DNA of 64,000 bases from Pseudocercospora fijiensis CIRAD86 (Eukaryota; Ascomycota; Dothideomycetes; Mycosphaerellales; Mycosphaerellaceae): assembly GCF_000340215.1 (NCBI RefSeq), contig NW_006921534.1, positions 2,747,057-2,811,056 of the forward strand. Reading direction: 5' to 3'. Positions 18,688-53,068 of the stretch are shown here, in pieces. A program made the position numbers and the translations under genes. Numbering within the stretch: position 1 is the first letter of the stretch; every line of letters begins with the position of its first letter. The notes under the pieces were generated by a model. The model made no database searches and was not told the origin of the DNA. It saw only the letters and a program-made list of their open reading frames with translations.

Positions 18688-18724
18688 GCGCCGAAGTTGA
18701 AGAAGGTCGGCTTTAGGCTAATTT
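18688..18724 (+). repeat. terminal inverted repeat, left end
   Basis: A 37-bp sequence beginning GCGCCGAAGTTGAAGAAGGT is identical to the reverse complement of 53032-53068. Inward of it the two ends continue with weaker similarity (a shared GGAATT/GAATT and GGG). It keeps TpG/CpA words such as TTGAAG, so it escaped RIP or predates it by chance. Confidence 0.8.
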
Positions 18725-19259
18725 CGTGAATTCTAGGGTTTTAAATAAAAGTTAATTAAGCCGCTATAACGTCTACTAACTTTTATAAACTTTTAGCTAG
18801 TCGGAGGCCTTCGGTAAGCGGAGCCGCGGCGAATCTATAGAGTACTATATACCTAGACTTTAGCGCTTTTAACTTAGTAGATATAAGGTAAAGGCCGAAG
18901 AATATAGTAAAGTAATATAGTAACGAGATTAGAGGACCGAGAAGAGTTTCTATTTATAGTAGCCGTACTACTTCTCCTAAATACTAAATAGAAGACCGCT
19001 AAGAGTATAAAAATATAACAAAGAGTACTATTATTCCCGAAGGCTAGTAAATAAAAAAGCAAATAAAGAAGTAGACTAGCTACTATACCTAAATACCGAA
19101 CACCTAGTAAGCGATATACGTCTTACTACTATATTTTAGGACTTACTATACGAATAAGTAAAAATTAGCAGGCGGCGACGCTACTATAAGTACTACTACC
19201 TTTACTACTATCTACACTACTACCGTAGCTACTACCGAAACTATCTAGCTTGCGATCTA

Positions 19260-19680
19260 GGCTCTTCTTAAGTAGGAGCCTAAGCTCCTCGTCGCGATAG
19301 AAGTAAGAGATCTAAAAGTAACGAAGTTAGTATTATATTCTATCTAGAATATAATAAGAATATTATACCTTACGGAGACGGTAGCGAGTACAACTACGAC
19401 TAGGCTTCTTAATATAGGCCTTAATACCTACTAAATAACTCTAGTACTTAAGGCTATCGCGATAGTAGGCGTCGTACGGACGGGCGAAACGATAGCCTAA
19501 GGTCGTTTCTATAATATAGACGACGTAGCGTAGCTACTTATAGCGATTTATATAGGCCGCTATAATATATGTTAGTATAATCCTTAATCGCTCGCTCGAT
19601 TAGTCTAACTTATAGTCGATAGTGTCCGGAGACTACTACTCTCCTATAACCTAAGTAGGCTTAGGCGTCGTGCCTAGAAT
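19260..19680 (-). other. coding-like remnant, unidentified
   Basis: On the minus strand one frame reads as plausible protein for over 100 codons, interrupted mainly by TAG/TAA of the kind RIP makes from CAG, CAA or TGG. It contains words such as VVYIIETTLGYRFARPYDAY and a basic stretch. I do not recognise the family. It lies close to the left end of the block. Confidence 0.3.
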
Positions 19681-19799
19681 AGGCGGCCTAGCTAGCTAAG
19701 AGCGAGGTACGCGAACACCTCCGGCCGGAATAGGCGGTATATTGCTAACCTACCCGCCTATCGTTAGTACTACGGCCGGCAGAGCGAAGAAAGGGATAG

Positions 19800-19985
19800 T
19801 AGCAGTAGTAGTAGTAGTAGAAGGAGGGAGGGCGTCGGTAGTAGTAGTAGAAGGAGGAGAAGGGAGGGCGTCGGTAGTAGTAGTAGTAGGAGGAGAAGGG
19901 AGGGCGGCGGCGGTAGTAGTAGTAGGAGGAGGAGAGAGGGCGGCGGCGGTAGTAGTAGTAGGAGAGGGGAGGGCGGCAGTATCGA
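19800..19985. repeat. GTA/GGAGG minisatellite
   Basis: Runs of GTA alternate with AGGAGG/AGGGCGGCGG in about five irregular units. The open frame of 95 Val/Gly/Glu-rich codons across it is a low-complexity artefact. Confidence 0.8.
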
Positions 19986-20079
19986 AGGCTACGGTAGTAG
20001 GGCTAATAAAAGGCTTATTCTCGCTATAGTATAGTTAGTATATATATAAATACGATAATAGCCTAGGAATATATAACTT

Positions 20080-20370
20080 ACTTATCGCTATCGTTGTTAC
20101 TACTAGCGCTAGTAGGGTTATAGTCGTCGCTATAGTATAGTTAGTATCGATTAAAACAGCTAATAGAGCTAAGTAACAACTTACTTATCGCCGCTAGTAC
20201 CGAAGTTTATATCGATATTACTATATCGTAGTTAGTATCGATTAAAATAGGCAACGGAGCAAAGCAATAACTTACTTGTCGCCGCTAGTACCGAAGTTTA
20301 TATCGATATTACTATATCGTAGTTAGTATTAATTAAAATAGGTAATAGAGCAAAGCAATACTTACTCGCC
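20080..20370. repeat. tandem repeat, period about 90 bp
   Basis: Three to four degenerate copies of a unit containing CGCCGCTAGTACCGAAG, followed by an ATATCGATATTACTATATCG palindrome-like segment. Successive copies begin near 20180, 20270 and 20360. Confidence 0.75.
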
Positions 20371-22049
20371 GCCTTACGGCTACTACTATAGTTACTACTA
20401 TAGTAGAGGTCTGCAATATATTAGCGCCTAGCGATTATAAGCAGATAAGACTAAAGATATATACGCCGGAGGAGCTAGCGGAGGAGGAGCTAGCAGAAGC
20501 TAATAGCTATTCTACGAATTAGTACTATATCTAAGGATTAATCGATAAGCTAAAAACGTACGTTACTATACCTATAGGAGTTATAAAGAAAGTCGGACTT
20601 CGAGATGTTAGTATATTCTTATCCTAAAACGCCTAAAACTAGCATACTTCTATAGCTGCTACTACTACTGCTACTGCTACTACTATAGCAAATGCAATCG
20701 AAGGGCGATATAGCGGCGGCGGTTGTAGCGGGATACGCGCTACGCGCGCGAAGTAGTAGACGCTAGAGCTCGCTCGCCCTATATACGTATTAATAGTATT
20801 CTAATCTCTAAATGCCTCCGAAGTTGCTAATTAATATATATATCTATACTAAAAAGAGGGTGCCCCGATAGGCGGCGAAAGAACGGGCTAGCTATCTTTA
20901 TTACTTTCTATACTGTTAACGTAGTTCTTATATTTAAGGTAACGTTATAGAAGAGGGTAAGAGGGTATATACGATGTCTTATAGAAGAAGAAGGAAGGAA
21001 GGAAACGATAGAGGGAGAAGAAATATATATATAAGGCTAAGGGCGGGATAAGTTCTATTGTCTACCTAAGAAGCAACGTAAAACTAACTAATAATAGTAT
21101 ATAAACTTTACTACTAGGAAAATGTAGGGCAAGTGAGGTAATAGCTCTACGTTCGCCCTATAAGAGCAGAATCGAAGTAAGGGTTAATACTCTATCCGAT
21201 ATAATCTTTAGGCTCTTATTAGCTAAAAGTTAGTAAAGGTTTCTAAAAGATGCTAAAACTTTATATAGACCGCTATCGCTCGAGGGATTAATAATAGTAA
21301 GGCCCTACTTTTTTCCGCTATTTCCTATTAACGTCGCCTATAATATCTACCCGCTCTAATATTCGGGCCCTCGTAAGTTAGTAAAAGTTTACAAAAGATA
21401 CTAAAACTTTATATAGACCGCTACTACTCGGGGGATTAACAATAGCAAGGCCCTACTTTTCCCGTTATTTACTATTAAAGTTGCCTAGAATATCAACTAA
21501 TTACCTAAGAAAGGTACGGATACGCCTATAAGGTATACTCCCTAGACTACGAAGTATACGCTAACCCTATATAGGCAAGATAAAGCACGATCGCGAAGAG
21601 TTGCGTACTTACTACTAAAGGCCTTAGCGGCTTTTATTAGGTCTCCTTTAGCTTTAGCGAATATTCTCGGGTTAGCTAAATACGTATATAATCCTATCGA
21701 CCGTAGTCTTAGAAGGCAGGCCTAGCTTATCGTTTACAAAGCGCCTATCGTCTATAGTGCGCCTATCGTTTACGGAGCGCTCCTTCGCTATAGAGCGCTC
21801 TTCGAGAGTAGGCCCGTCCTATTAACTATAGAGAGCTTATCGAGAGTAGGCCTATCCTATCGATCGTAGAGTACTTATCGAGAGTAGGCCTAGCTTAGGG
21901 TTTACGCGCGCTTCTTCGAGAGTAGGCCTATCCTATCGACCGTAGAATGCTTATCGAGAGTAGGCCCGGCTTGCCGTTTACGGAGCGCTTCTTCGATAGT
22001 AGTACTAGCCTTAAGCTTATACTCGTTAGTATCTTAGGTAGAGTTCTAA
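20371..22049. other. mutated repeat DNA without recognisable genes
   Basis: No coding remnant was recognised. Two near-identical segments near 21225-21320 and 21375-21475 (AAAGTTAGTAAA-type words followed by a GACCGCTA motif) form a dispersed duplication. From about 21720 to 22010 several copies of a segment containing TCGAGAGTAGGCC follow one another. Confidence 0.5.
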
Positions 22050-22340
22050 ATTCGATACTCTAACTAGCGGCGTACTTCGTTAGGGTCCTAGACCTAGATA
22101 GAGTCTTAAATTCGACACTCTAACTAGTAGCGCGCTTCGTTAGGGTCCTAGATCTAGATAGAGTCTTAAATTCGATACTCTAATAAGTAGCGCGCTTCGT
22201 TAGGGTCCTAGACCTAGATAGAGTCTTAAATTCGACACTCTAACTAGTAGCGCGCTTCGTTAGGGTCCTAGACCTAGACAGAGTCTTGAATTCGATACTC
22301 TAACTAGTAGCGCGCTTCGTTAGGGTCTTAAGCGGGAGTC
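22050..22340. repeat. tandem repeat, period exactly 60 bp
   Basis: Five copies in register, each with AGCGCGCTTCGTTAGGGTCC and GTCTTAAATTCGA. The copies differ by single C/T changes of the RIP kind, so the array was probably amplified before or between RIP rounds. Confidence 0.9.
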
Positions 22341-25300
22341 TTAGTAGGAGTAGCAGCCTCTACCTTCGCTTCTAATGCTTTAATTTTACTCGCTTCTACG
22401 CCGTTTGCTTATCTATATAGGCCCGAAGGTTCCCTATCGAGCGTAGTAATGCCTATTGCGTTAAGCTAGTGTTTATTTACTTAGTAAGGGTATTAGGACC
22501 CTTAGTCGCTACCGCCGGCTTAGTATCTCCTAGACCGGCGCAAGTATTATAGAAGAAAGGAGAAAGAAATATAGAAGATAGTTGCTTTTATAGTAGCTAC
22601 TACACTTTACCCTATATTAACTACTTCTCGGCAATAAGCTAGATCTGCCTCTTCTACCTTAGTAGTAATAATAGTACCGAAGGGCTAGTTTGTTTACTTA
22701 GTATAGGCGGCACTAAAGGAATAGTATTAATTAAGTTAGAGGTAGCAAGAGTGCTATAACCCTTACTCCCTTAGTAGACTTAGTACCTATCGGGAGGCGT
22801 CTATAGCACTAATAAACCCTAGGCGTATATAAATAGTCTAAAACTTGCCGAAAGTTAATAAAAGTTGCCGAATAATATCTAGTCGCTAAAGGATAAACAG
22901 TCTCGAAGGTATAACCTTATAGTAAAGCGGGCGCCGGAGCTCTTACGAATCTCGCTAATCTTGCTACTACCGCGACTAATAGTATATCCTACTATATTAG
23001 CCGGTATGCTAAAACTTTAAGTTTAGATATCCCCGCTATCTTTAGACAACGACCGCTTTATAAGCGGCTTAAAGCTAATAAAACTTAGTAAAAGATATCG
23101 GCTATATTAGCCGATATGCTAATACTTTAACTTTAGATATTCTCGCTATCTCTAGATAACGACCGCATTGTAAGCGGCTTAAAGCTAATAAAACTTAGTA
23201 AAAGATGTCGCCGGTCGGCTATATTAGCCGATATACTAATACTTTGACTTTAGATATTCTCGCTATCTCTAGATAACGACCGTATTATAAGCGGCTAAAA
23301 GTTGCTAAAACTCGATAAACGATATCGGCTCGTTATAAATAACTAATATCCCTGAGGCCGATTATAGCGCTAAGGGCGGTAGGGAGTAACGAATTAAGTA
23401 TTAAAGTAACAATAGTAGTCGGATAGTATTATAAGGCGTATAGTAAGGGTATAATACCGAAGTAAGATCGATACGGTAAAATTGAGCTCGATAAGAGAGT
23501 CGCTTATAAATTAGACTCCTCGCCGACCTTCTTCTATTCTCTTTCTTCTTTACCGATATATACTATCCTCGCCTTTAATACCTCGCCGTCGCAGTCGCTA
23601 CTATATCTAACTAAGAACTCGACGAAATTGCAGACTTTATACTAGACTTTCTGTCTCCCGGGGCGTAGGCGCCTCTACTATAATAGTAGTAGTAGTAGGA
23701 CTAGTAGGACTAGTAGGACTAGTAGGGCGGCTCGGTTTAGGATATCGATACCCTAGACGAGTATACCTTCTATCTTCGCCTTATATAAGGCCGTAGCTAA
23801 TATATCCTAGTATCGTTAATATAGCGGCCTTAGCGCTACTAGCTCTAGCACTATCTCGGCGTTCTAGTCTAAGTATATAGGCGCGTCGATAGCAAGACCG
23901 CTCTCGCTAAGGCCTGCCTCTTATCTCTCTACCTCCTCCTCCGCTACCTCTAGCCTCGACTTTAGTACCTAGGGCGCTACTACCGCTAGCACTAGCACTA
24001 GTACTAGCACTAGCTTAGGCTTAGAAGAAGAAGAAGAAGAAGGGTCTAAGTAGCCTACGGATTGCGCTACGCTGCCTATAGGCTAATAAGGCCTACTATT
24101 CCGAGACTATAAAGCTATAGATAGAGAGTTCGAACGAGATATAGATTAGATTAACGCATATCGGCCGTATCGAAGAGATAGATAAAGGAGAGTTGCGTAC
24201 GCCTACCTATAAGCGCTATACCCGCTTAGGCTATACCTATCGTATATATACTAAGGAGGGCAAGTAGGTATACGATAGTAGTGCCGGCAATATAAAGTGC
24301 GGCCGCTATCGATACCGTAGAGTCGGCAATTCTAAATATATAGATTCTTAAGTTGAAATAATATCTATACCTATATACCTGCGATATACCTCGTTTTCTA
24401 CCTCTTGTTATTTAAATCTTGCGCTCTAAGCGGCTAAATCCGATCGTTAATATCGCTATCGTCGTTCCTCTACCGATATATAAGATCGTATAATCCTCGC
24501 GCCTTAGCTACTACATTTTCTTCTCGACCTAAAACTCCTCTTCTAATCGGTTCGAATCTATAGCGTAGAGGACGATAAACCCTATAGCTCCCGAGGACCC
24601 GAGGTCCTACAAACCCTACTTATAAACTTTGTAGGTTTAAGGCGCGCGGATAATACTCGAGGGGTAAAAATTAGTAGCTTAGACGGGTTAGATAGGCGAC
24701 GTAGGCTTAGCTAGGGTAGGCCCGTCCGCGGCCCTACCTCGAACGAACTTTTAGCAACTTTTATTAACTTTCGGCTAATAAGACCTAAGAGCCTCTTAGT
24801 AGCGGGTACTATACGTTAAGAAGCCTGTCTCCGAAAATTCTTATTAACTTTTAGTATTAATAACGCCGCTAGTCTAGAAGCATACGTCGCCTAACCGCAA
24901 CCTTCTTAGCCGTAAGATATACTATATCTTAAGGGTAGGGAACGTAGCTAAACATTCTATAGGCATAAATATCTAGCAACTCGACGACTTTATCCGCTAA
25001 ACACGATCGCTAACGACTATCGCCTACGATATACTAGCTCGTATTGCTCTAATTAAGGCAAAATTTAAGGGCACTAGAGACTAAGCTAGTCTAGTCGTTA
25101 AGAAGCCTACAGATTATACCGGCGTCGCCGCGACAACGGTTGTACTAGAATCCCGGAGCCTATAGGCTTAAGGAGCGCGGATATTACTTCTATATTTAAA
25201 GAGCTAAAAAATAGATATTAGGCATAAGGCTTTAGTATAATAACAAGACTTTAGCATAATAACAAGACTTTAGTATAATAATAGGACTAGCAAAAGAAGA

Positions 25301-25394
25301 TAGCGAATTATATAAAGGTCTAAAAAGATCAAAATAGTTATTATCTAGAAGAACAATACCTCTATAAAAGGCTAATACCTAAGCAAAAGAAGAT
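22341..25394. other. mutated DNA with a 100-120 bp tandem repeat
   Basis: At about 22980-23320 three copies of a 100-120 bp unit occur, containing GATAACGACCGC and a TATATTAGCCGATATGCTAA segment. The rest shows CpG-rich but TpA-saturated sequence, with no coding remnant I can defend. A short stretch of AG/AAG repeats lies near 24010-24045. Confidence 0.5.
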
Positions 25395-25493
25395 AGCCCC
25401 TCCGAGATTCGAACCCGGGTTACTCTAGTATAAAAGAGACATTCTCGATCGAGTATAACGCAAGTATATAGATTGTAACCGCTCTCGGATGCC
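25395..25493 (-). pseudogene. tRNA-like fossil
   Basis: On the minus strand the 3' part carries an intact T-arm, with the GGTTCGAATC box and pairing CCGGG/CTCGG stems. The ends GGCATCC and AGGGGCT pair at five of seven positions; one mismatch is C-A, as RIP of a G would leave. A seven-base loop CTTGCGT closed by TATA stems could be the anticodon loop (TGC). The 99-nt length implies an intron or long variable arm. The D-arm is not convincing, so this is probably a dead copy. Confidence 0.4.
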
Positions 25494-25839
25494 TAAGTAG
25501 TACTACCTCCGGCCCTAGGAAGTCTCTGCGAGTAATACAGAGCTAAGGCTAGAGGTATATAACTGCTTAATAGGCGATCTTCGAGCAATTACGCTCTGTT
25601 GCTATGCCGTAGAGCGTAATTAACTACTATACTAAAGGGCCTAATTAGATAATAGCAAGGCTATATAGTGCCTACATTAATGTCCCTTATCTACGGCAAT
25701 ATCGACAAGTTAAACAAGTCCTATAGCCCTAAGGAGATTAAGGGATTAGGTTAAGGAACTTACCCTAGGCAGCTTCGGTTATTACCTTATTCGCCTTATA
25801 GAATAGGCCGATATCAATTAGTACTTATCTACGAGAAGT

Positions 25840-26010
25840 TAAATAATAACCTTAAGTCTAAAACAACTAGCAAATTCTCGTAATAGATAGACGAGAAGTG
25901 CAACAATAAGAAGTTAATAATAACCTTAAGCCTAAGATAAGTAGTAGACCTTAGTAAAATAAGAAGGTTAATAATAACCTTAAGCCTAAGACATTCGGCA
26001 AGTCTCGACG
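25840..26010. repeat. short tandem repeat beside the Argonaute fossil
   Basis: Three copies of a segment containing AATAATAACCTTAAGCCTAA, spaced 60-70 bp apart. They begin where the PIWI half of the Argonaute fossil would be expected, so they may mark its truncation point. Confidence 0.7.
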
Positions 26011-26049
26011 TAATAGACAGACGTTACTCTCGGAAGATTTTAGAAAGTA

Positions 26050-26630
26050 GTAGAGACAGATATTGTATTTCTTAGCGAAGTAGTCGTAGAGGGATATAGT
26101 TACCTTATTGCCTCGAGGATTAGTAACCTATACCTTATACTGCTTAGCATCCTAGTAGATAAAGCGCTCGATATAATACTTATCCTCGTTATACTAGCTA
26201 CGGCGCTTAGCAATAACGCGGACCTTCCGGAACTTCTTAAGACTAACACTATACTTGCCCTTCTCCCCCTTACGCTAAATACCGGTAATAAGGTCGCTAA
26301 TATCGCGAGCACCGTAATAGTAGATTAATAAAGTATATCGGCAGTCTAGAAAGTGCCGTTAGCTATATCGACATTAACAGAAAGGCGGCCTAGGTAAACG
26401 ATACGTAGAGACTAGTATATACCCTTAAAAGCCTCGATACCGCTACCTAAGATAGACCGAGTCTAACTACGAGCGAAGCGTTATAATAGTGTCTAACGGA
26501 GGAGGTAGTCGGCGAAGGCAATAGCCTTAAGGTAGGTATTATCGAACGAGGCCTTGCCCTAAAGGTAGTCTATTAATTGCTAGAAACTAACCTACTAAGA
26601 CCGTATTTGCCCTTCTCGCCTATCTTCTAG
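26050..26630 (-). pseudogene. Argonaute (QDE-2-like) fossil: N, L1 and PAZ part
   Basis: Argonaute proteins bind small RNAs and guide silencing. Here only decayed parts remain on the minus strand. At about 26420-26600 a frame reads FDNTYLKAIAFADYLLR, then a short gap, then SILGSGIEAFKGIY, like the end of the N domain and the L1/DUF1785 linker, then GRLSVNVDIANGTF. After a one-base frame change near 26330 a second frame gives ISDLITGI, KGKYSVSLKKFRKVRVIAKR, YIERF and finally NKVTISLYDYFAKKYNI, the typical end of a PAZ domain. Stops are TAG/TAA of RIP type. The expected continuation LRYP and the whole PIWI (slicer) domain are not visible downstream, where tandem repeats begin. Family assignment is by motif memory, not search. 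Confidence 0.7.
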
Positions 26631-27499
26631 AGACCGGTTTAAGCCTAAGCAAAAACAAAAGCTTTTAAAACTACGAAGATTACTACCTAAAGCAGATAGA
26701 ACTAGTAGAAGTCGATACGTACGACGAGACATATAGGTACTAGAGGAGGAGGAGGTAGAGTAGGTACGAATAGTAGTAGTAGTAGCGGTAGTAGTACTAT
26801 AGGTCCGGCCGGAGGTGCGATAGGAGGCGGCAAGGCAAGCGGCGCTAGACTAAATAGACCTAGCGCGAATAGTCTAAGACTTTATAGATTTAGCAATAGT
26901 ACTATTTAAGGTACCTACGGCGGTGCTACCGTACCCTATCTAGATCTATATTAGCGGCAGAAACGACGATTTTACTAGGCTAGAGGATAACGTACCTAGC
27001 CCCGAAGCGAGTAGCCCGCCGTAGGATCTATGCTACCGCTACTTATATATCGCCCTCGTTTAGCTTTATAACGGCTACATTTCCTAGTTAGCGCGTACCT
27101 AAGGTAGAGACGAGCCTACTAGAGCAACTTGCGGCGTACTAGTGCTATCTTTGTTACTTTCCGTACCGCTAACGTAGTTCTTGTATTTAAGGTAACGTTG
27201 TTATAGGGGAGAGCGAGAAAGTATATATTATATCGATAGACTTAGGAAGTACGCAATATATAACTATAAGAGTAAGGTAAGTTTAGCAGGTTTAGTTATT
27301 TAAGTAAGCTCGTATTGTTCTAAAAGTGAATAGGAAACTTATAACCTAGCCTTCCTTCCTAGCAACGTCGTAGTACGCTCTAAGGCGTTAACGAAGGAGG
27401 CGAGGGAGGGAATACTATACTCTATCGAGGCAAAGGGAATCGAATCTATTAAGTTCAACCTAGAAGCTATTTAAATAACTAATATCAAAGCTAGAAACA

Positions 27500-28560
27500 T
27501 TTAAATAATAAGACTAATACTAGAAATACCGAAATCTATATTAATACTCGATGCTTAGCCCTTCTTATTAACCTTCTTGCCTCCTATAGATCTCGGCGAT
27601 ATTAGTAGAGGTGTCTGCCCTAGATAATATCCCTAGTCTGCCTTAAAATTCTCTCGCGCTATATCTATAGCCTCTCGCTCGATCGCTACCTAAGCTAGCC
27701 CTTAAGATATAGTACTCGTCGGCTAGACCTACTACTAGTTAATATACTAATACTAATCTTAGTCGCAATACTAGGACCTATAGCTTAATTCAGGTTCTCT
27801 ACTAGTCGCTAGGAAGTAGGGGATTAACTTTCGCGAGTCTATAAACCCTATTCTAACGTATTAACTTCTCGCTCTAAGATAGAGATATAAAGGCCTAGCT
27901 ATCGGCTATAACGCGGAACGCTTTTTAGATGCCCTCCTATAATATTACTACTTTAGCACTCTTGTCTATTAACTTCTAGAGCTCCCTGCCCTTCCCGCCT
28001 ATAATATCTCCGGCTTGAGTTAGCTCTTATTATTGCCTTCGGTTTGCTTATCGAGAGGTCGGTAGTACTAGCTGCATTAGAGGCCCGTATACTCGCGCGT
28101 ACTATTCTAGGAACGTAGGCTCGTATACCGACTATAGACTTATACGGTTACCGCTATTCGGACTATTATCGTTATACTAATATCCCTAACGCGTAGGGAC
28201 CTAAGGGTAACTATTCGGGAACAGAGTATACGAGTCTCGGATTATTAACGTACGCTAGTAGTCTTCGTCGAGGTCGCGATAACGTCCGAATAGCGTAAAA
28301 GAAGCTTGCCTCGTCTAATTCGGAAGGCCCTAAATGCCTGCCTCTCTAGAGTTAAACTAATACGCAAAGGTAATACCGCCTTATCTATTATTCGCCGCTA
28401 CTAGCGTCTATACGACTAACTATAGTATAGTCGCCGGGCCGCTATTGTTCGGCAGATCGTACTACTTCGTAGCAAAATAGAGCATACCTAGGAACGCTCT
28501 ACCTACGCCGTTCTAAACTATGCCGATAATAATACCCTTTAAATATTAGTATTCGTACGG
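27500..28560 (-). other. long coding-like remnant, unidentified
   Basis: On the minus strand one frame gives over 250 residues of protein-like sequence interrupted only by TAG/TAA. It starts with a hydrophobic, Gly-rich part (VGRAFLGMLYFATK), continues through YEPTFLE and YARVYGPLMQLVLPTS, and ends with a helical, charged part (KGRELQKLIDKSAKVVIL). No family was recognised. It lies upstream, in the same direction, of the Argonaute fossil. Confidence 0.4.
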
Positions 28561-29359
28561 ACGAATCGACGACTATAGGCACTTACTATTCCCTAAGGGC
28601 TACGAACTAGACCTATATCCGTATCGAAATAAGCTAGTAACAATAGCGCTCCGCCCTAGTTCTACTAGCCCTAGTTCTACTATATATTATTAGACATTTC
28701 GTCGAAGTAGCTCGAGTGTTCTATACTATCGGGTAATTAATAATTGTTATTAAAGAAGGGAAGGGGGATTGCCGTTAACTAAAGTCTTATATACTATAAC
28801 TAACTACCTACTAGAGCTCCTTCCTTATCGCCTAGAAAGTATACGTAGATAATAGACGAAGTTACGCGGTATATAATAGTTTAAGTTATACTAGTAGTAA
28901 AGGACGGAAACTAATACTACTACTACTACTTGTAGCAATAGTACAGGCTACCGAGGGTAACATAACCTATAGCAATATAGGCAGCTATGTTTAGCAAGAT
29001 AGGATAACGAGACTGTCGCTTAGGCTAATAACTAGAGCCCTACAATATAGGCATTATAGAAGTGTAACATAAACAATATGCTATACGAGGTTAATAATCT
29101 GTCTACTCTATAGAAGGAGGCCTCTTATATAGGCTCAAAACTAGCCTATAGGTGTAGGGCCGGTTACTAGCTAATAGTAGTAACATTTCTACTATTATAT
29201 GCCGCTTCTAGAAGTAGGCGCTAGTTGCTACCTGCCCTTCGTATAGGAAAGTAGGTATTTAACGCCTATACTAAGCCCTCGATTAATCTTATCGATAATA
29301 ATAATAACCTCCGGAATATAGCTATCTTCTTAGAACCTTAAACATACGTCTAAGCTAAC

Positions 29360-30110
29360 CCGAATACCGAAGTTTACTATAGCTCCTACCTACTTCGACG
29401 TCGACGGAGGTATAGTACGGTATTAAGACTAGTAGGTATAGATCTAAGAAAGCTAAGGATCTATAGACACTAACTATACGCTTTAGGTCTCGTATATTAA
29501 AGTTAGCGAGGTTGTTTATAAGGACGGATCGATAGCTCTACTTGCGATCGGTCGTAAGGAATAGCGTACGGACAAACCGAATAAGTAGTATGCCGCTAAA
29601 CTATAGACCTTTATTGTTATCGAATTCGATCGGAAGGAGATTAAATAGAACTAGCTATAGTAGGACATTCGCGATATCTAAGGCTCTAATATGTTTATCG
29701 TATACGAATAGAAGGATTTAGGCAGGATTTAGAATCTTCCTCCTAGCCTAGTCGAAAGCAAGAGGGTTAGTATAGTTATAGAGCGGAAGGCCTCGAAGCT
29801 ACCGGAATATCCCGAGGTTTAGAAGATCCGTTAGTTTAAGAGATATAAAGATCTTATATAGATATAGCGGATAAGGCAATTCGAGGAGGATTATATAGTA
29901 ATCGACTTTAGTAGTAGTATAAAGCTAGCAACTTATAGCTAATACCGCACTACTAAGGATAGCAAAGGCCCTAGTTCGTAGACGAAGTTCTTCCGCAAGC
30001 GTAGCTTCGAGCCGCCGATACCGTAGTAGAGGTTCTAGTAGCTATTTAGCCTATAAAAGCAGGTCGCGAAGAGATACTAACGTTTAAGAAGAATATAACC
30101 GTACTAATAC
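29360..30110 (+). other. long coding-like remnant, unidentified
   Basis: A plus-strand frame reads as protein for about 240 codons with stops only at TAG/TAA. Recognisable words include VSYIKVSEVVYKDGSIALLA, FIVIEFDRKEIK and VSIVIERKASKLPEYPEV, and the C-terminal part is basic. No family is recognised. It faces away from the minus-strand remnant at 27.5-28.6 kb. Confidence 0.4.
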
Positions 30111-30754
30111 TATAAGATGCTTTATATAGTAGTACGTAAAACTTATATTAAACTAAGTCTACTATCCCGTATATATTATTATTATATCCTATACGAGTCG
30201 TCGATGCTTAAGGTCTATTAAATACAGTTTTAGAGATATAGAAAAGGGGGGGAGGGGGGCGGCCGATAGACGCAAATCCCTCCTAGTATAATAGAAAGTC
30301 TTAGCTATAGGCTATAGATTCTAAATTAAGATCGACGGCGGGCTAGATATTCCGAATAGAAATCGGCCGTAGGTTGCTAATTCTAAGTTAAAATCGGCCG
30401 TAGGCTGCTAATTCTAAGTTAAAATCGATAGCGGGCTAGATATTCCGAGTAGAAATCGGCCGTAGGCTATAGATTATAAATTAGAATCGGCTATAATATA
30501 GAAAGCGATAGTAGTAGTGTCGCTACCGTCGATAATTTAACGAGTTAAACGACAATGCCCGCGTCGTTCGAAGTAGGGCACTATCTCCGCTATTAAGTAG
30601 CTTCTAACGTATATACTATACTAGCAAGCGCTTCTAAACGGGGATAGGGTACTTGCTCTATATCGTAAGGGGCGGAGCACGAAGTCGGGAGGCTAGATAC
30701 CCGAAATAAAGACCTAAATAAGTAGACTTAGCACCTAGGCTAGGCTAGCGGTAC

Positions 30755-44224: not shown

Positions 44225-44580
44225 AACTATAACAAAACCTGCAACGACTACGACTAGCGACCTGTAACGACTAGCGACCTATAACGACTAGCGACCTATA
44301 ACGACTAGCGACCTATAACGACTAGCGACCTATAACGACTAGCGACCTATAACGACTAGCGACTAGCGACCTATAACGACTACGACTAGCGACCTATAAC
44401 GACTATAACTAGCAACCTATAACGACTACGACTAGCGACCTATAACGACTAGCGACCTATAACGACTAGCGACCTATAACGACTAGCGACTAGCGACCTA
44501 TAGCGACTACGACTAGCGACCTATAACGACTAGCGACCTATAACGACTAGCGACCTGCAACGACTAGCGACCTATAAGGA
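44225..44580. repeat. 17-bp minisatellite
   Basis: About 20 copies of CGACCTATAACGACTAG, some shortened or extended by CGACTA. The array ends some 330 bp before the chromovirus 5' LTR. Confidence 0.9.
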
Positions 44581-44906
44581 TATATAAGGCGGAAGCTTCG
44601 CTCGCACTTTATAGGCACGTAGAGCTACCTATAAGTATATATTATTGCCTTAAATATAAGGACTACGTAAGCGGTACTAAAGGCAGTATACGCGGTAGTA
44701 AGTTAAGCTCTAAATTAATCGAATTCGATTATATATTAACTAGGTATTTTAGCCGTCTCGCCCTCGCCGCGCTGCGCGCTCGTCTAGTAGAACGAGTATA
44801 ACGTCCTTATCTTAGTAGCGGCGATTCTATACGGTTAGACGCGAAATAGCGCTAGCATTCGGTATAGACTCGCACTCTAGACTCGAATTACGTAAGAAAT
44901 GCTAAT

Positions 44907-45103
44907 TGTTAGGGCTAAAGAGGCTACACGTAATTAGTATATAACTAGGCCGAGTAAAGCTAGGGTCTTAATGCCTTAGGCAGGGCTTGGCGCTTAGCGT
45001 TAGGCTAACTCTCCTACCTTCCTCCCTCTCCTCCTAGATCTCTATCGAATACTAAACTAATTTACTACTACCCTATCTACCTGCTAACATAACCCTTCTT
45101 ATA
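44907..45103 (+). repeat. 5' LTR of the chromovirus
   Basis: 197 bp, from TGTTAGGGC to CTTCTTATA. It differs from the 3' LTR at four positions, each a transition that exchanges CpA/TpG for TpA. Confidence 0.93.
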
Positions 45104-45360
45104 TAGTATTCGATCTACCCTTTAAGGGTAGCAGCTAGATAGTCCTTATTTTAAGCTTTTAGCGGTATAGCTACGAAAACTATCGATTTAACTATATTGC
45201 GCCTAAAGAACGGGACCTATACGTACTATTCTATCGAAACAACCGTACTAATTATTAAGCAAGGCCTTCTATACGGCCTATTACACTAAGTTAATTATAC
45301 TAGGCCGATATCTACTAATTCCGCTATATCCGTATCTTAGGGGCTAATAATACATTATTA

Positions 45361-46700
45361 GTGCCGCCCCTTATAATAGCCGGTTTATTACAAAACAACA
45401 ATCGCGGCGCCGCTAGCAGCGCTAGCAATAACAATATAAGTAGCATAGCACCTACTAAAGTGCCTACTAAAGCACCTGCTAAAGTGCCTCCTACTAAAGA
45501 GCCTACTAGAGAGCCTACTAAAGAACCTGTAATTCTAGGTAACGACCTAGAATTGTCTGTCGACGACATTCTTAATAATATTGTTAACCGTCGATATAGC
45601 TAACTAGCCTTTAGTCCCTAACTAGTAGCGAGACTTTAAGGAGCTACTTAAAACAGGCTTACTGTCTTACGCTAAGAACAATAGCTAAAGGATAATCTCC
45701 TCGAAATTCGTCGCCTATAAGAAGCCCTAGCAACTAATACTAAACTAATAGTAGGGCCTTCCTCTCTATCTGTTTTAGTCTAAAAGAAGGATGCTAAACT
45801 CAAGGACTGTACTATATTTAATAGCTCTAGTCGGAAACAATATAACGACTATATCCGTAACTGCGAGCTTAATTAGCGAAACGCGCTAAGGGCCCTTCTA
45901 GACGACTACTCGTTAGTCGTCTATACTATACAATACATTAATAGAGACCTAAAGCGTACCTAGGATAACTATTTCGACTCCCTTACTAACTAGACCGCTA
46001 TTTAGTAGCAAGACTACAAGACTATTATACTAGATACCCTTAGAAACCCTATACTAAGGCAACAATACGCTTAGGACTAATACCTTCGAGCTAAACAAAA
46101 GACTAATTAATCGGCTCGCTTATTTAAGGCCTATTTAAAGACCCTTAAGGACGATTTGCTAGCTAAGACCGACTCTATCTAGATTTCCGAAATACGCCCT
46201 AAATTGCGATAGGAACTAGTCCTCGAATTAGACCGCCGCCGTATATTCGAACAGGCTAACCTAATACGCATTTAATTTATAGTCGAAGTAGAAATAGCCG
46301 AACGAGCTGTTTAGCTTTAGTAATAGCTAGAATCGAGGATCCGACTAACTAGTACTAACCGTAGCAACCGTAGTAGCCGCGGCGGAGGAAACTAAGGTTC
46401 CTACTAGAATAACAATACTAACAATAATAGTAACAACGACCGTAGGAGAAGCCGTAGCCGACGGCTATATAGAGGAGGCCGTAATAGGGGCCGTAGAAGG
46501 GGCTCGTATCCCTATAGTACTAATCGCTCGGCTAACAATAGCGGTAATAGCTATAGCAATCCCCTAACCGGACTGAAGTGCTTTAATTGTAATAGCACTA
46601 GCTATCTACTAGGCTAATACGACAAACCTAAGGACTAGGCCCGAATCGACCGTACTACTACTAAGCACCGAAAGCACCTTTTAGCAGCTAACGCTACCCC
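45361..46700 (+). pseudogene. gag fossil with decayed zinc knuckle
   Basis: The gag region starts with an Asn/Ala-rich leader and Lys-Pro-Thr repeats (VPTKAPAKVP; 45361-45603 stays open for 80 codons) and continues as a charged, helical capsid-like sequence full of TAG/TAA. Near 46579-46620 the CxxC of a nucleocapsid zinc knuckle is present (CFNC), but the following His and last Cys positions both read Tyr, as C-to-T and G-to-A changes would produce. Confidence 0.8.
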
Positions 46701-46799
46701 TATAGGCTAACCTTCGAAAAAAGAGTAAGCGCCGCACTAACTATTAGCCTTATACGGCGTAAGACTATCGACATTGTGCTAGCTATAATACGCTCCTAC

Positions 46800-48720
46800 C
46801 TTATATAGGATACGAAGGGCACTACCTATTAAACTAAGGTTATACTAGATCTAGGAAATTCAGTTAGTACCCTTATTAGCTATCGCCTAGCTAAGCAATT
46901 AGACCTTCGATAACTGCCTAGGACTAACCTACTAACCCTTGCTTAGTTTAATAACGCTCGGCACTTGACCTATAGGGCCTACTATATTCCTATAGCCCTA
47001 AAGGACGACCTCGGAAATAAACGCCTACTAGACTTTACTGCCTACGTAGTAGATATAGACAACTTGTATAGGGGAGCTATTATTATTATTAGCAACCCTA
47101 TTCTTAAGCACTATGCTATAGTTGTAGACTTAGGCAGTTAATAATAGCGATTTAGAATCGCTAGAAGAGAGGATATTAAATATATCGACATTAGCGAGTG
47201 TCCTAATAATATTAGGGTCCTGTTTATTAGCAACCTAATACTAGCCTCTGCCTTAGCCGACCTAACAGTCGACCTATTAGGCGACGATAATAAGCCTATG
47301 CCCCCTAATAGCATAGACTCTAATTAGCTCGAGCGTATACTAGAGCCTATTCGAGAGACCTATATTAATGTGTTTAAACACTACTTAGTATCGACATTGC
47401 CTATATTTAAAGAGATAGACTATAAGATTAACATTATAGAAGGCAAAGAGGTTCCTTTTAGTCCCCTCTACAACCTTAGTAAACGAGAGCTCGCTATATT
47501 ACGTAAGTACCTAGAGGAAAACCTAGCTAACGGTCGCATTCGGTATAGTAACAGCCCTACTAGTGTACCTATCCTGTTCGTACTAAAGAAGGATAGTAGC
47601 CTACGCCTATATGTCGACTATCGTAGGCTTAATACTATTACTATTAAAGACCGCTATCTACTTCCGCTTATTAACGAGACCCTCGATCGCCTTTCTAGCG
47701 CTTACTACTATACTATATTAGATATTAAGGATATATACTATCGCATCCGCATCCGTAAGGGCGATAAATAGAAAACAGCCTTTCGCACTCGTTATAGCTA
47801 TTTTAAGTACTTAGTTATACTATTTAGGCTAGCTAATACCTCTACTATATTCTAGTCCTATATTAATCGGGCCCTTTTAGGCCTATTAGACTATCTCTAT
47901 ATAGTTTACCTAGATAACATCCTAGTTTATATATATTTACCTAATATTACAGAACACTAGGCCGTAGTGCGTAAGGTCCTCGACCGCCTACAAGCCTATA
48001 GATTATATTACAAGCCTTCTAAATACACCTTTGCTACTAAAGAGGTGTTATTCCTCGGCTTCCTCGTATTAACTAAGGGTATTAAGGCTAATCCTAATCG
48101 GATTAAGACTATTACTAAATAGCCTATTCCTACGTTAATTAAGGAACTATAGTCGTTCCTCGGTTTTGCTAACTTCTATCGCCGATTTATTAAGGGCTAT
48201 TCGAGGCATATAATGCTACTAACTGAGCTTACTAAAACTAAGGCTAACCCGTCTAGAGAATTTAAATAGACCGACAAGACACAAGCCGCTTTTAACGGTC
48301 TAAAGAAGCGATTTACTAAAGTCCCCTTATTATACTATTTCGTACTAAGCAAACAGATCCGAATTGAGACTAACGCTTTACAGTTCGCTATATTAGCTAT
48401 TATATTACAGTAGGCTAATAACACCTACTAGCACCCGATTGCCTTCTTCTCGAGGAAAAAAATTAATACTAAACGTCGCTACGAGACCTACGAGTAAGAG
48501 CTCCTAGCTATTATCGAGGCCTTTAAGTATTAGAGGCACTACCTCGATAGGGCTTAATATACAATACAGGTCTATATAGACTATAACAACCTCCGTAGTA
48601 TTACTAAGATTACTAGGGTTACAGGTCGATAGGCTAGATAGGCCGTCTACCTCGCCGGGTTTGATTTTAATATATTATACTAGCTAGGCGTAAGTAACCC
48701 TGCCGATAGCCTATCGAGGC
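46800..48720 (+). pseudogene. pol fossil: protease, reverse transcriptase, RNase H
   Basis: The aspartic protease site reads DLGNSVS near 46848. The reverse transcriptase keeps its longest open piece at 47370-47771, with YVDYRRLN and the LDIKD catalytic motif; the YxDD box at about 47905 reads YLDN, its second Asp lost by GAC to AAC. RNase H follows at about 48360-48600 (FAILAIIL, PIAFFSRKKIN, ELLAIIEAFKY). Stops are of RIP type throughout. Confidence 0.9.
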
Positions 48721-49239
48721 GACCTAATTACGATAGCGAGACCTAATACATCAATTCTTTGTTTCTAATCCTATAGTATAAGATTGCTATAGCCTATATT
48801 GTTAATAAGCAAGCGTAGGATAAGCGGCTTACCGGACTCCGCGACGGCTTAAAGTATGTTAATGCTCTTACTATATTAATAGTGCGTATTAAGGCAAGGG
48901 CTAAGGACACAGATAGGAGAAGTTATAATAACTCCCTAGTCGACATCGCAATATATAGTAATAGCGATAGTACTACTATAGTTAATCCGGCTACTAGTAC
49001 TATTAAATGTATATAATACGTACCTCGTTTAATAGCGAGGGTGCTATTAAATAACCTTACAAATAGGGATAGTTAATCGTTTATAAATAAGCTGTTACGT
49101 GCTTAGTAGAGGGACGCCTTTACTACTAAACGTATCGACAAGCTTATAAGTAGGCAAACGACTCGATCTAGTAAGAGTAACTAGTCGGTCGATAACAAAG
49201 GTTATTTGAAGTTTAAGGGCAGATACTATATCCCCGCTA

Positions 49240-50590
49240 AATATTCGATCCGACAAGAACTTCTTAAGCGATACTATAATAGTAAGCTTGCCGGTTACTA
49301 TAGTATAGAGAGGTCGTACGAGCTACTATCGCGTATATACTACTAGCTAAATAGTAAGCGGGATATAAAGGAATACGTTAACACGTATACCGTATACTAA
49401 CGTGTTAAGGCACTAAAGTATTAGCCTTTTAGCGAGTTGTCCTTATTGCTAATTCCCTATAAGCTATTTGTAGAGCTTATAATAGATTTTATTATAGGTC
49501 TCCCCCCTACTAAGCGAAGAGGAAGCAAAGACATCTTTAACGCTATCCTAGTCGTTATAGACCGGTTTACTAAGGGCGCTCGATACATCCCGGCGCGGAA
49601 AGATTAGACTGCTATTAATATAGTAGAAGCGCTATAGAACAATATCTTCTATACCTATTAGGGGACCCCTAAAGGGATAGTCTCTAACCGAGGCTCGACA
49701 TTTATATCTTATTATTAGAGTGAGATTTGTCTATAGCTAAGACTTAAGTATCGCCTGTCTATAGTATTCTATCTACAAACAGATAGTTAGACCGAAAGGC
49801 AGAATGCTACGCTATAGCAGTACCTACGTAGCTATATTAATAAGAACCCTAATAACTAGGTTAATCTCCTACAACCCGCCGAATTCGTATATAACAATAG
49901 TGTCTACTTATCTACTAAGGTGTTACCTTATTTCGCTATAATAGGCTAGAACGCTACTATGCTATAAGACCCCCTATCGCTCGAGGCCGAGCGTAAGGAA
50001 AGGGAAGCGGGTCAACCTAAGATACTAGCGGCTATTAAGAGGGTTTAAAAGATGCGAGAAATTCACGCTAAGATAGCTAACAAACTAGCAAAGGCCTAGG
50101 CCTATTAGAAGGCCTACTATAATAAACACTACCTTCTAATAACCTTCAAGTAAGGCGACCTAGTTATACTTAGTACGAAGAACCTCCGTATCCGCAAATA
50201 CCCCTTACCTAATAGCAAAACAAGGCCCAAACTCGCACTAAGGTATATTAGCCCTTTCCGTATCCGAGAACCTAGGGGTACCTAGGCCTATTAGTTATAG
50301 CTTCTACCTTATTATACTATCTATAATACCTTCTACGTATCCCTCCTTAAGCCGTACTATCTACGTAAAGGGGATGAAGTACCTACTAAATCCGAGGATA
50401 TACTAGCTAATAGCGAAGAGCTATAGTCTATAGAACGTATCCTATAGCACCGGACTAGGAACGGCAAGAAGGAGTACCTATTAAGATAGTAAGGCTATTT
50501 ACCTAAATAGGACTCGTAGGAAGCTAAAGGTTCCTTTAAAGATATAACTAAGTTGTTAGACGAATATTAGACTAGCGTAAAGAACAAGAA
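49240..50590 (+). pseudogene. pol fossil: integrase and chromodomain
   Basis: The zinc-binding N-terminal part of the integrase lies near 49280-49400. The core reads ELIIDFIIGLPPTKRRGS and VVIDRFTKGARYIP, typical of Ty3-type enzymes, and QTERQ-like words lie near 49790. At about 50430-50575 a sequence with NGKKEYL, GYLPK and EAEGSFKD resembles a chromodomain, the module by which chromoviruses target methylated-H3 heterochromatin. Integrase 3' of RNase H fixes the Ty3 order. Confidence 0.87.
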
Positions 50591-51890
50591 GAAGGCTAAG
50601 AGCTTATAATGCCGCCAATGTTACTAAAAGAGACCTAAGAACAATACCACCCCCGGGGTGCTATTAGCTAACTAATTAGAAGCAAGCAATTGTTAGTAAC
50701 GAAGGACAATAAGACTATACTACTATAGCGGACGCGTACTAAGTATTAACAAGCGCGCTATAACGCGACAACTAATCGTATACTCTTTTAAGGGCTCTAC
50801 CTCTTTACTAATACGCCCTATAGGGCCTTCCCCTAGCATTAGGTCCCTCTTTTATTCCTTTATCCTATCGAGGATAATAGTGTCGCGCTACGAGCTAGTA
50901 GTGTGCCGGCGGCCGGCGTAGCTATATTAGTAACGGTGTTACGGAGTGTGTTGCTATTTAAGAAAGGAAGGATATAGCTATATTAGTAACGGTGTTGCCG
51001 AGTTATTATTAGTTAAAGAAGGAAATTAGAAGAAGGTAAAGTTAGCGCTAAGACGACTAGCGCTGCTATTATTAACATTACTTACTATTATCGCTACGCC
51101 TATAGATACAACCTTACCTATACTACGAGCCTAAGGCACCTTTAATCAAAACTTTAATTAAAAGCTTTAAGCCTATTAAAGGTTTAATTAAAACTTTAAG
51201 GCTAAGTTAAAACTTTAACTAAGTTAAAAGATTAAGCGACTAATAGACTAACTAAGGGTAAAACTATAGAGCTAAGCTAGCCGGGGTCGATCTTACGGAC
51301 AATAGGTTACTCCTCGATCTATTTAACCCTTTAAGCGAGGCGAACCTCTACTACTACACTTATAATAGCCTTTACCTATAGAAACTAGAAGAACTAAGTT
51401 TTTTGAAAAGATATAATTAGTTAACACTTAAAGGCTACTAAACCTAACTAATTTAGGCTAGTAAAACTACGACAGTAAATAATAGCCCTCGTAATAATAA
51501 GAATAACCCTCGGAAGCGGACATTGCTAGGTCTTTTAAGAGTAGACGCAAAGAACTCGGTACGACATTACGTAGAGCGGAGGCAGGGCTGTAATACCTCG
51601 TACGTCTACCTATTATAGTAGGGAAGACGCGCTCGTATTATAATTAGTCGAAGGCCCTCAATTCTTGTAGATATATATTACTTTATAGTTTATTATATAT
51701 AGGGATAGCGCAGTTAGAGTTAGATATTGTGTTAGAAGGTAAGGTTTGATATAGTTATATAATTAGGTAGTTAAGTGTTTAATTTAGCGCAGACTAAGCG
51801 GCTTATTAGACCTACTAAGTTAGTAGTAATAGGGGTTGAGACTAGAACAAAGACCGGCTACGAGGGCGCGGCCTTTAGAAGAGAAGCGTA

Positions 51891-52087
51891 TATTAGGGCT
51901 AAAGAGGCTACACGTAATTGGCATATAACTAGGCCGAGTAAAGCTAGGGTCTTAATGCCTTAGGCAGGGCTTGGCGCTTAGCGTTAGGCTAACTCTCCTA
52001 CCTTCCTCCCTCTCCTCCTAGATCTCTATCGAATACTAAACTAATTCACTACTACCCTATCTACCTGCTAACATAACCCTTCTTATA
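51891..52087 (+). repeat. 3' LTR of the chromovirus
   Basis: 197 bp, ending CTTCTTATA and followed by the target duplication CTAAT. It keeps TGG and TCAC words where the 5' copy has TAG and TTAC, and has TA where the 5' copy starts TG. Confidence 0.93.
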
Positions 52088-52092
52088 CTAAT

Positions 52093-53031
52093 TCTCGCTT
52101 AGTCCGGCCCTACTACTCCCTACTATACCGCTACCGCCGCCGCTACCGACGATAACGATAAGGATAACGATAAGGATAACGATAAGGATAACGATAACGA
52201 TAATAATAAGAGATTAGATAGTTAGGGTATTAGTCTTAGTCGCTATTGTTTAGTTAGTCTTACGCTTGCTCGATAGTACGCAATTGCGCGTATCTACTAG
52301 CGCCGCTCTACTCTTTTAAATATATTATTAATTAATATACTGCTATTCGCTAGCCTCGCTTTAGTATAAGTATAATAACTTATCCTTTGTGTTTCTTCCT
52401 ATTTCTTCTCTTCTATAGTTGTTATAATATTACTTGCGATACTGTCTGCCCTAATATATATATAAGGTAAGGTGTTTAATAATATAGATATATACTATCT
52501 TACGAACGATACGGAACAAACGACTCTTTAGATTAATAGGTAACGCGGATAAAGGCGTATAAGACAGCGTTATACGATATAAGTGTTATTTAAATACTAG
52601 TATAAGCCTAAATGTCGCTAAACTTATATTTAATCTTTTAATATTTTAATATTTAAATAAGAACACTTAAAACGTTAACAATCTATATTAGCAGCTATAA
52701 CTATCTGTTTACGCCTATATTACGCTTAGAATTACCCTAATATCTAATAGAATCTAGATCTCTGCTTATAGGGCGATCGACTATTGCCGACCTTACTATC
52801 GCTATAATAATAGACCGATCTAAACGGCTTAGTATAGCTTTCTACCCCCTGCTGTCTAAATATTCTACTATATTACTACTACTACTACCTTAGCATCTTC
52901 GCCGCTTAAAATAATTTATTTAAGAGCGACGACTAAGTACTCCTATCGATATTTGCTCGAGATAGTATATATAAAAGGCACTACTACAAGTTAAACAAAC
53001 TAACCAATTCTCAGGATTCCCGAAATTCCTA
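52093..53031. other. right end of the mutated block
   Basis: No gene is recognisable. A run of GATAACGATAAG units occurs at about 52145-52200. TpA saturation continues to about 52985 and then fades within some 50 bp of the right terminal repeat. Confidence 0.5.
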
Positions 53032-53068
53032 AAATTAGCCTAAAGCCGACCTTCTTCAACTTCGGCGC
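53032..53068 (-). repeat. terminal inverted repeat, right end
   Basis: Identical over 37 bp to the reverse complement of 18688-18724. Beyond it the sequence is normal and leads to the asparagine synthetase gene. Confidence 0.8.

What the first reader, a model, noticed from the sequence alone, without database searches (positions are those of the whole stretch)
18688..53068. Perfect 37-bp inverted repeats sit exactly at both borders of the 34-kb mutated block
18688-18724 equals the reverse complement of 53032-53068 at all 37 positions, and RIP-type sequence starts and stops within tens of bases of them. This is the signature of one very large mobile element with short terminal repeats, carrying an integrase and an Argonaute, rather than a random pile of repeats. 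I find no matching target duplication and no recognised tyrosine recombinase, so it does not fit Starship as read; it may be an undescribed giant DNA transposon.
Basis: partly seen in the sequence, partly recalled or inferred. Interest (0 to 1): 0.88.

Follow-up and report, generated by a model that had tools for sequence, protein, structure and literature searches.

The report
Giant fungal transposon with Argonaute fragment
The 34-kb mutated block is one copy of a large, now dead, jumping element of a fungus that duplicated about six bases of its target on insertion, carries the ruined gene of an integrase-type enzyme and a piece of a host RNA-silencing gene, and exists as at least five near-identical copies in this genome.

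Summary
The 37-mer occurs nine times in the 73.9-Mb genome (0 control hits): four inverted pairs 25.6-65.9 kb apart, plus one end whose partner side runs into N. All nine are borders of one family with a ~25-kb core, ~95% identical between copies; 80-86% of differences are RIP-type.

The element reaches 6 bp beyond each 37-mer, with a different conserved hexamer at each end. Outside lie 6-bp target duplications, perfect in three elements, 5 of 6 here.

All five copies encode a RIP-damaged DDE integrase (Pfam rva_4) whose relatives, often with a Clr5 domain, are widespread in filamentous ascomycetes; a relative folds like TnsB and retroviral integrases. The "Argonaute" is a 0.57-kb RIPped piece (ArgoL1-PAZ, no Piwi) of a host gene. 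About 9 kb of this copy are later insertions, mainly a 7.2-kb Ty3/gypsy element. No Starship recombinase or Polinton polymerase was found (soft negatives).

Most striking in passing: 57 of 64 Piwi matches in this genome lie in damaged copies; the 23 read carry partial Argonaute genes in at least three other repeat lineages. RdRP and chaperonin controls show nothing like it.

The parts
18676..18681 (.). left copy of the 6-bp target-site duplication (ATATAG)
   Evidence: differs from the right copy by one RIP-type change
18682..53074 (+). whole element, L end to R end, nested insertions included
18682..18687 (+). outermost L hexamer GAGAGA (AAGAGA in copy C1a), outside the inverted repeat
   Evidence: 4 of 4 L ends read
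18688..18724 (+). left 37-bp terminal inverted repeat
26046..26593 (-). captured fragment of the host Argonaute gene AGO-B (ArgoL1-PAZ part), RIPped, two deletions (24 and 7 bp)
   Evidence: (copy C5a)
28900..29175 (.). 276-bp insertion not in copy C5a; also found in locus L035 at 93%
30744..31349 (.). 26-bp tandem repeat array of the core
34049..34523 (.). 95-bp tandem repeat array of the core
39366..40427 (-). RIP-damaged rva_4 DDE integrase gene, candidate transposase (matched part; N-terminal Clr5 region of its relatives not found here)
   Evidence: (copy C5a)
40658..41637 (.). 980-bp insertion not in copy C5a, flanked by 7-bp direct repeat TATATAC
43841..44638 (.). 798-bp insertion not in copy C5a
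44907..52090 (+). nested Ty3/gypsy chromovirus (RT, RNase H, H2C2, Tf2-type SH3, weak chromo domain); not part of the giant element
44909..45103 (+). left LTR of the nested retrotransposon (matched part)
   Evidence: 192 of 195 identical to the right LTR
51893..52087 (+). right LTR of the nested retrotransposon (matched part)
53032..53068 (-). right 37-bp terminal inverted repeat
53069..53074 (+). outermost R hexamer ACCAGG (ACTAGG in copies C1a and C1b), different from the L hexamer
   Evidence: 5 of 5 R ends read
53075..53080 (.). right copy of the 6-bp target-site duplication (GTATAG)

Best explanation
The block is one RIP-killed copy of a giant DNA transposon with a ~25-kb core (shown). 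It most likely moved by a DDE integrase of the rva_4 type that the family encodes itself (inferred). The enzyme would bind the 37-bp repeats at both ends, join the ends to target cuts staggered by 6 bp, and leave 6-bp duplications after gap repair (the duplications are shown, the chemistry is inferred). Before a burst that left at least five near-identical copies, the element had taken up a 0.57-kb piece of a host Argonaute gene (shown as present in four copies; capture inferred). RIP then damaged all copies; the second catalytic Asp of the integrase is read as Asn in five of five. Retrotransposons and small insertions later enlarged some copies, up to 65.9 kb.
For: Nine of nine genome hits of the 37-mer are element borders, eight of them in four inverted pairs. 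L and R ends have their own inner and outer flanks, conserved between copies at different sites. 6-mers outside the conserved hexamers match 5, 6, 6 and 6 of 6 in the four two-ended copies; 6/6 is the best offset for 6-mers among 256 tried. Cores are collinear at ~95%; 80-86% of substitutions between copies are RIP-type, with 1 to 34 transversions per pair over 5.0 to 22.8 kb aligned. Integrase in 5 of 5 copies; homologues in Aspergillus, Penicillium, Elaphomyces, Fusarium, Paracoccidioides and lichen fungi. The model of homologue P0014 (mean pLDDT 87.0, pTM 0.81) matches TnsB, retroviral integrases and MuA (first 20 Foldseek rows: E 5e-5 to 1.9e-3, probability 0.98-1.00). Argonaute piece: 571-579 bp at 80-82% identity, 51-59 of 72-82 substitutions RIP-type in the three copies that align over the whole piece.
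Against: No copy has an intact integrase, so activity is not shown; the changed catalytic residue is the same in 5 of 5 copies, so the ancestor of the burst may already have been dead and moved in trans, or RIP hit the same site five times. The Clr5 region of the relatives was not found in the element. The integrase is linked to the ends only by sitting inside all five copies. Most of the core has no recognised gene, and another enzyme hidden by RIP could be the transposase. The outermost 6 bp differ between the ends, which is unusual for DDE elements. A 5-bp duplication (the last five bases) fits 4 of 4 copies perfectly; 6 bp is favoured because the first base also agrees in 3 of 4 and is not conserved between sites, but 5 is not excluded. 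TM-scores are low (0.12-0.27 by query in the PDB list), so only the catalytic fold is matched. No empty site was seen.
Confidence: 0.78

Rival explanations
1. A Polinton/Maverick that has lost its recognisable replication and capsid genes through RIP. It would replicate itself and integrate with 6-bp duplications.
For: 6-bp duplication (Polinton 6 bp per PMC10045372 passages), 25-kb size, integrase of the retroviral superfamily.
Against: No PolB: PF03175 has three matches elsewhere, none in the element. No Polinton domain in the six-frame Pfam scans of copy C5a and of parts of C3 and C1b. Inverted repeats are 37 bp, not hundreds (recalled criterion). In viral contigs 51 stretches matched two peptide patterns and none encoded a relative. 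All are soft negatives because of RIP.
Confidence: 0.08
2. A non-autonomous element moved in trans by some other transposase, or by a lost intact copy; the integrase in these copies is passenger or already dead.
For: Most of the core is unassigned; outer hexamers are asymmetric; the same catalytic change in 5 of 5 copies.
Against: The integrase is in 5 of 5 copies, and retroviral integrases cut targets 4-6 bp apart (PMC10045372 passages), as the duplication would need.
Confidence: 0.14
3. A Starship whose captain is unreadable.
For: Giant size, fungus, cargo.
Against: DUF3435 search finds an intact and a heavily RIPped gene elsewhere but none here; duplications of fixed length at four unlike target sequences and 37-bp inverted repeats argue for a DDE enzyme.
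Confidence: 0.01
4. A chance pile of separate insertions between two unrelated short repeats.
For: Four nested insertions are indeed present.
Against: Once these are set aside, the remainder is collinear in five copies at five places, as far as the fifth can be read.
Confidence: 0.01

Closest known systems
Polinton/Maverick
   Same: 6-bp duplications, integrase of the retroviral superfamily, tens of kb
   Different: no PolB or other Polinton genes found; 37-bp repeats; relatives of the integrase carry Clr5
Integrase-type DNA transposons (Ginger1, Ginger2/TDD, IS3EU/GingerRoot, IS481EU)
   Same: TIR element with a DDE integrase-like transposase
   Different: those for which lengths were seen leave 4, 4-5 or ~4/~15/~25 bp; the small size of those elements is recalled
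Starship
   Same: giant fungal DNA element
   Different: no DUF3435 tyrosine recombinase found here; inverted repeats and 6-bp duplications
hAT transposon of Pseudocercospora fijiensis that captured histone H3 (PMC6710886: abstract and passages)
   Same: same kind of event, very probably in the same species: host gene sequence captured by a DNA transposon, amplified, then RIPped while the original stays intact
   Different: 8-bp duplication, 20-bp TIR, 9.5 kb, 784 H3 copies in 471 elements; here 6 bp, 37 bp, 25 kb, at least five copies and an Argonaute piece

Membership tests
TIR DNA transposon (DDE type) | terminal inverted repeats at both ends of several copies | tested here: met
   9 of 9 hits are borders, four inverted pairs
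TIR DNA transposon (DDE type) | target-site duplication of fixed length | tested here: met
   6 bp, perfect in 3 of 4 copies, 5 of 6 in the window copy
TIR DNA transposon (DDE type) | encoded DDE transposase or integrase | tested here: met
   second catalytic Asp read as Asn in 5 of 5 copies, so inactive now
TIR DNA transposon (DDE type) | encoded enzyme acts on these ends | not testable with these tools
   no intact copy, no assay
Polinton/Maverick | 6-bp target-site duplication | tested here: met
Polinton/Maverick | protein-primed DNA polymerase B | tested here: not met
   three matches in the genome, none in the element; RIP lowers sensitivity
Polinton/Maverick | packaging ATPase, protease, capsid genes | tested here: inconclusive
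   none in the six-frame Pfam scans, but RIP damage lowers sensitivity
Polinton/Maverick | long inverted repeats (hundreds of bp; recalled) | tested here: not met
   37 bp, 45 nt at 93%
Starship | DUF3435 tyrosine recombinase at one end | tested here: not met
   RIPped DUF3435 gene on C17 found, none in the element
Ginger1 / IS481EU | target duplication of 4 bp, or ~4/~15/~25 bp | tested here: not met
Ginger2/TDD | target duplication of 4 or 5 bp | tested here: inconclusive
   6 bp favoured, 5 bp not excluded; transposase grouping not tested
IS3EU/GingerRoot | phylogenetic grouping of the transposase | not tested
   no reference sequences at hand
hAT | 8-bp duplication and hAT transposase | tested here: not met
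   6 bp; no hAT domain
Transduplication (host gene captured by a DNA transposon) | host gene piece inside the repeats, moved with the element, parent gene elsewhere | tested here: met
   piece in 4 of 5 copies (the fifth runs into N first); parent AGO-B intact on contig C10

The most novel reading that the evidence does not exclude
In this genome several unrelated transposon lineages, this giant element among them, have each taken up pieces of two of the six host Argonaute genes at different times. Carrying Argonaute sequence may have paid off for the transposons: as a source of small RNAs against the host's silencing enzyme, as a dominant-negative protein, or as bait that exposes the host gene to RIP (the one test made of the last gave no sign of it). 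On this reading Argonaute capture is a recurrent counter-defence of fungal transposons, on top of a new class of giant transposons driven by rva_4 integrases.
Probability: 0.2. Interest if true: 0.87.

Novelty: new variant of a known kind. Interest (0 to 1): 0.63.

Why it matters
It adds a giant DNA transposon with defined ends, duplication length and candidate enzyme that fits neither Starship nor Polinton as tested, and gives a likely meaning to a widespread, unnamed fungal protein family (rva_4 integrase, often with Clr5). It also shows transposons in one genome repeatedly picking up the gene of their own silencer, which makes the idea of capture as counter-defence testable with small-RNA data and related genomes.

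Tried and rejected
Tried without yield: PF24764 as a family search of the own genome found nothing (its controls did not ring either), though the fragment scan of copy C5a rings at E 4.9e-5, below the curated cut-off, and tblastn finds the gene in all five copies; so family searches miss RIPped genes and their negatives are soft. Viral contigs: 51 pattern hits, no relative of the integrase. Sequence search of the PDB with the integrase profile gave seven weak hits, mostly to HTH proteins. KH and FliO hits were below their cut-offs and are taken as noise. An rve/H2C2 hit in copy C1b is taken as a retrotransposon inside that copy. Second giant family: one end motif in six places, no inverted partner at up to 3 mismatches; far end not reached; no rva_4 integrase in the ten loci tested, seven of them of that family.

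Rejected: RIP leaking into the parent Argonaute gene. The captured stretch looked the most RIP-like of five, but against 3000 synonymous-codon shuffles it is ordinary (p 0.64-0.66), and the captured AGO-A stretches likewise (smallest p 0.20). Rejected: full Argonaute on the element; only residues 108-300 of the L026 frame match. Rejected: Starship, hAT, plain Polinton (membership rows). Copy C1a was mis-framed and dropped; searches cover it. Copy C1b was not in those two alignments. In one search, aligned pieces under 900 bp or under 92% identity and overlapping pieces were left out. Searches of the own genome scored only part of their candidates (40 of 192, 40 of 103, 38 of 372), so counts from them are lower bounds.
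Full report
WHAT WAS CHECKED. 18688-18724 and 53032-53068 are perfect inverted repeats of 37 bp, part of a 45-nt match at 93%. Dinucleotide indices show that RIP-type sequence begins and ends at them to within 100 bp. The window lies in a 73.9-Mb, 30-contig genome, at C3:2747057-2811056. The host is very probably Pseudocercospora fijiensis: the closest protein to one of its Argonautes is from P. musae at 94%, and the published assembly has ~74 Mb and a largest scaffold of 11.8 Mb (PMC4981457, passages), against 73.9 Mb and 11.88 Mb here. This naming is inference.

A FAMILY OF FIVE. The 37-mer with up to 3 mismatches has nine places in the genome and none for the reversed-pattern control; its first 23 bases find the same nine. 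Eight are inverted pairs: C1:3186655/3252528 (65.9 kb), C1:5656411/5698616 (42.2 kb), C3:2765744/2800124 (this window, 34.4 kb) and C5:4106284/4131851 (25.6 kb). The ninth, C5:3439015, opens a fifth copy that runs into N after about 10.6 kb; copy C1:5656411 also holds 14.3 kb of N. Whether these N are assembly gaps or withheld was not told. The copies share a core of about 25 kb at ~95% identity. The 9-kb right part finds five copies at length, with 40 of 192 candidates scored. Between copies, 80-86% of substitutions are of the RIP type, with 1 to 34 transversions per pair over 5.0 to 22.8 kb aligned, so the copies were almost identical when they landed. The four variants of the 37-mer differ only at sites of the RIP type. 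In its least mutated form the repeat holds just one CpA and one TpG, which explains why it looks perfect inside ruined DNA.

ENDS AND TARGET DUPLICATION. Inside the 37-mer the two ends differ (CGTGAATTC... at L, TAGGAATTTC... at R). Outside it, every L end read shows (G/A)AGAGA (4 of 4) and every R end ACCAGG or ACTAGG (5 of 5). These hexamers belong to the element. Beyond them lie 6-bp direct repeats: CTATAT/CTATAT, CTGCCC/CTGCCC, GGGGTA/GGGGTA, and here ATATAG/GTATAG. Among 256 offset pairs the 6/6 offset scores best for 6-mers (5, 6, 6, 6 of 6); in the same register the last five bases match in 4 of 4. The mismatch here is of the RIP type. Six is favoured over five because the first base agrees in 3 of 4 copies and differs between sites; five is not excluded. 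That the outermost six bases differ between the ends remains unexplained.

NESTED INSERTIONS. Against copy C5a this copy has four extra pieces: 44907-52090, a Ty3/gypsy chromovirus with RT, RNase H, H2C2, Tf2-type SH3 and a weak chromo domain and LTRs identical at 192 of 195 positions; 40658-41637 with a 7-bp direct repeat; 43841-44638; and 28900-29175. Copy C1a is largest because it holds several relatives of the same retrotransposon.

THE INTEGRASE. Six-frame Pfam scans with X at stops covered copy C5a except its last 1.6 kb at the L end, which was covered in C3 and C1b. The only integrase hit in the core was rva_4 (PF24764), E 4.9e-5, 23.6 bits against a cut-off of 26. A search with three aligned copies found 4 proteins, and a second search from the Aspergillus ambiguus one found 157, of which 120 were listed: named ones are from Aspergillus, Penicillium, Talaromyces, Elaphomyces, Fusarium, Paracoccidioides, lichen fungi and others. 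By my reading all listed bear rva_4 and about three in five also Clr5. With 13 of these as queries, tblastn finds the gene in 5 of 5 copies, at 39366-40427 minus in the window. The match covers about residues 130-484 of the 520-residue homologue P0014; its N-terminal Clr5 region was not found in the element. Of the catalytic residues, the first Asp and the Glu stand in the three copies aligned; the second Asp is read as Asn in 5 of 5, so the enzyme is dead in these copies. The model of P0014 (mean pLDDT 87.0, pTM 0.81) matches TnsB of CRISPR-associated transposons and Tn7, foamy and Rous sarcoma virus integrases and MuA (first 20 rows E 5e-5 to 1.9e-3, probability 0.98-1.00; TM-scores low, 0.12-0.27 by query over the list). 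In predicted viral structures the named hits at E under 0.001 are retroviral pol proteins and a phage transposase. By sequence alone the PDB gave nothing useful. The target spacing of retroviral integrases, 4-6 bp (PMC10045372, passages), agrees with the duplication.

THE ARGONAUTE. ArgoL1 (E 1.8e-8) and PAZ (E 1e-3) are hit in copy C5a. Of six Argonaute gene products tested, only that of L026 (AGO-B, contig C10) matches, over residues 108-300 of the frame held, in 4 of 4 two-ended copies. No Piwi part is there. In the three copies that align over the whole piece (80-82% identity) 51-59 of 72-82 substitutions are RIP-type; what remains is about 4%. AGO-B is an ordinary conserved Dothideomycete Argonaute (398 hits, 120 listed), and the captured piece is nearer to it than to the P. 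musae gene (69-71% against 64-69% over the better-kept part). So this is a captured host gene fragment. It looks older than the burst (about 4% against 0.6-0.9% non-RIP divergence between copies).

ARGONAUTE CAPTURE ELSEWHERE. A Piwi search of the genome gives 64 matches. Seven belong to six genes with long frames (one of the seven has a stop); the other 57 all carry in-frame stops. Thirty loci were read, 23 of them damaged, at 21 places. They carry pieces of AGO-A (C3:5764311) or AGO-B, with different spans and deletions. By the 1.5-kb flanks held, at least three lineages besides this element can be told apart (L030/L034/L045 group; L038-L050 group; L032/L035 group). Non-RIP divergence from the host gene ranges from about 4% to 14% in the eight loci measured and is 28% in a sister giant family. 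As controls, RdRP gives 6 matches and chaperonin 11, none with more than 3 stops. Two control families are few, and histone H3 is known to be captured 784 times in P. fijiensis (PMC6710886, passages), so Argonaute is not unique. I tested whether the parent genes show RIP in the captured stretches; they do not, once protein sequence is held fixed.

WHAT IT IS NOT. DUF3435 is found elsewhere, also in a gene with 23 RIP stops over three matches, but not here. DNA polymerase B is not here. Both are soft negatives, since PF24764 itself was missed by this kind of search. The M. [quoted passage not shown] In the listings of ten paper searches I saw no description of this element, of rva_4/Clr5-integrase transposons or of Argonaute capture by fungal transposons; most papers of subscription journals, and preprints, are not in that library.

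VERDICT. A real giant DNA transposon family with a probable new kind of transposase for its size class: a new variant of a known kind. The recurrent Argonaute capture is the part that most deserves follow-up.

Noticed in passing
G000 genome, loci L030-L054 (without L031 and L033): RIPped, partly deleted copies of two host Argonaute genes ride in several repeat families (57 of 64 Piwi matches lie in damaged copies, 23 loci read).
   Followed up: partly
G000:C7:2714616 to beyond 2734800, with sisters on C9, C3, C5 (two) and C6: A second giant repeat family, at least 20 kb by its two sampled ends, ~70-85% alike to parts of this element's left half, with a shared end motif in six places and a weak remnant of Argonaute PAZ. 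No inverted partner of the end motif found; the middle was not fetched.
   Followed up: partly
window 56400-60000: A second, separate RIP block; no match over 150 bp to any locus held.
   Followed up: no
G000:C8:455400-459000 (L055): RIPped partial relative of the core, 85-92% over up to 1.1 kb.
   Followed up: partly
G000:C3:1851487-1851945 (L060): 461 bp at 88% to the core next to the Argonaute piece, in little-RIPped DNA beside a RIPped edge; possible donor site of another captured stretch.
   Followed up: partly
L021:6035-6178 (core): A ~140-bp repeat found at about 26 other places and matching on both strands, MITE-like.
   Followed up: no
G000:C17:423076-424444 and C3:5543119-5544141: A RIPped and an intact DUF3435 (Starship captain-like) gene.
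   Followed up: no
window 53469-55319: Asparagine synthase gene (Pfam 1.9e-82) whose open frame begins about 400 bp from the element's right end.
   Followed up: no
G000:C5:3922256, C18:502472, C16:514922: Stray DNA polymerase B (PF03175) fragments with stops.
   Followed up: no
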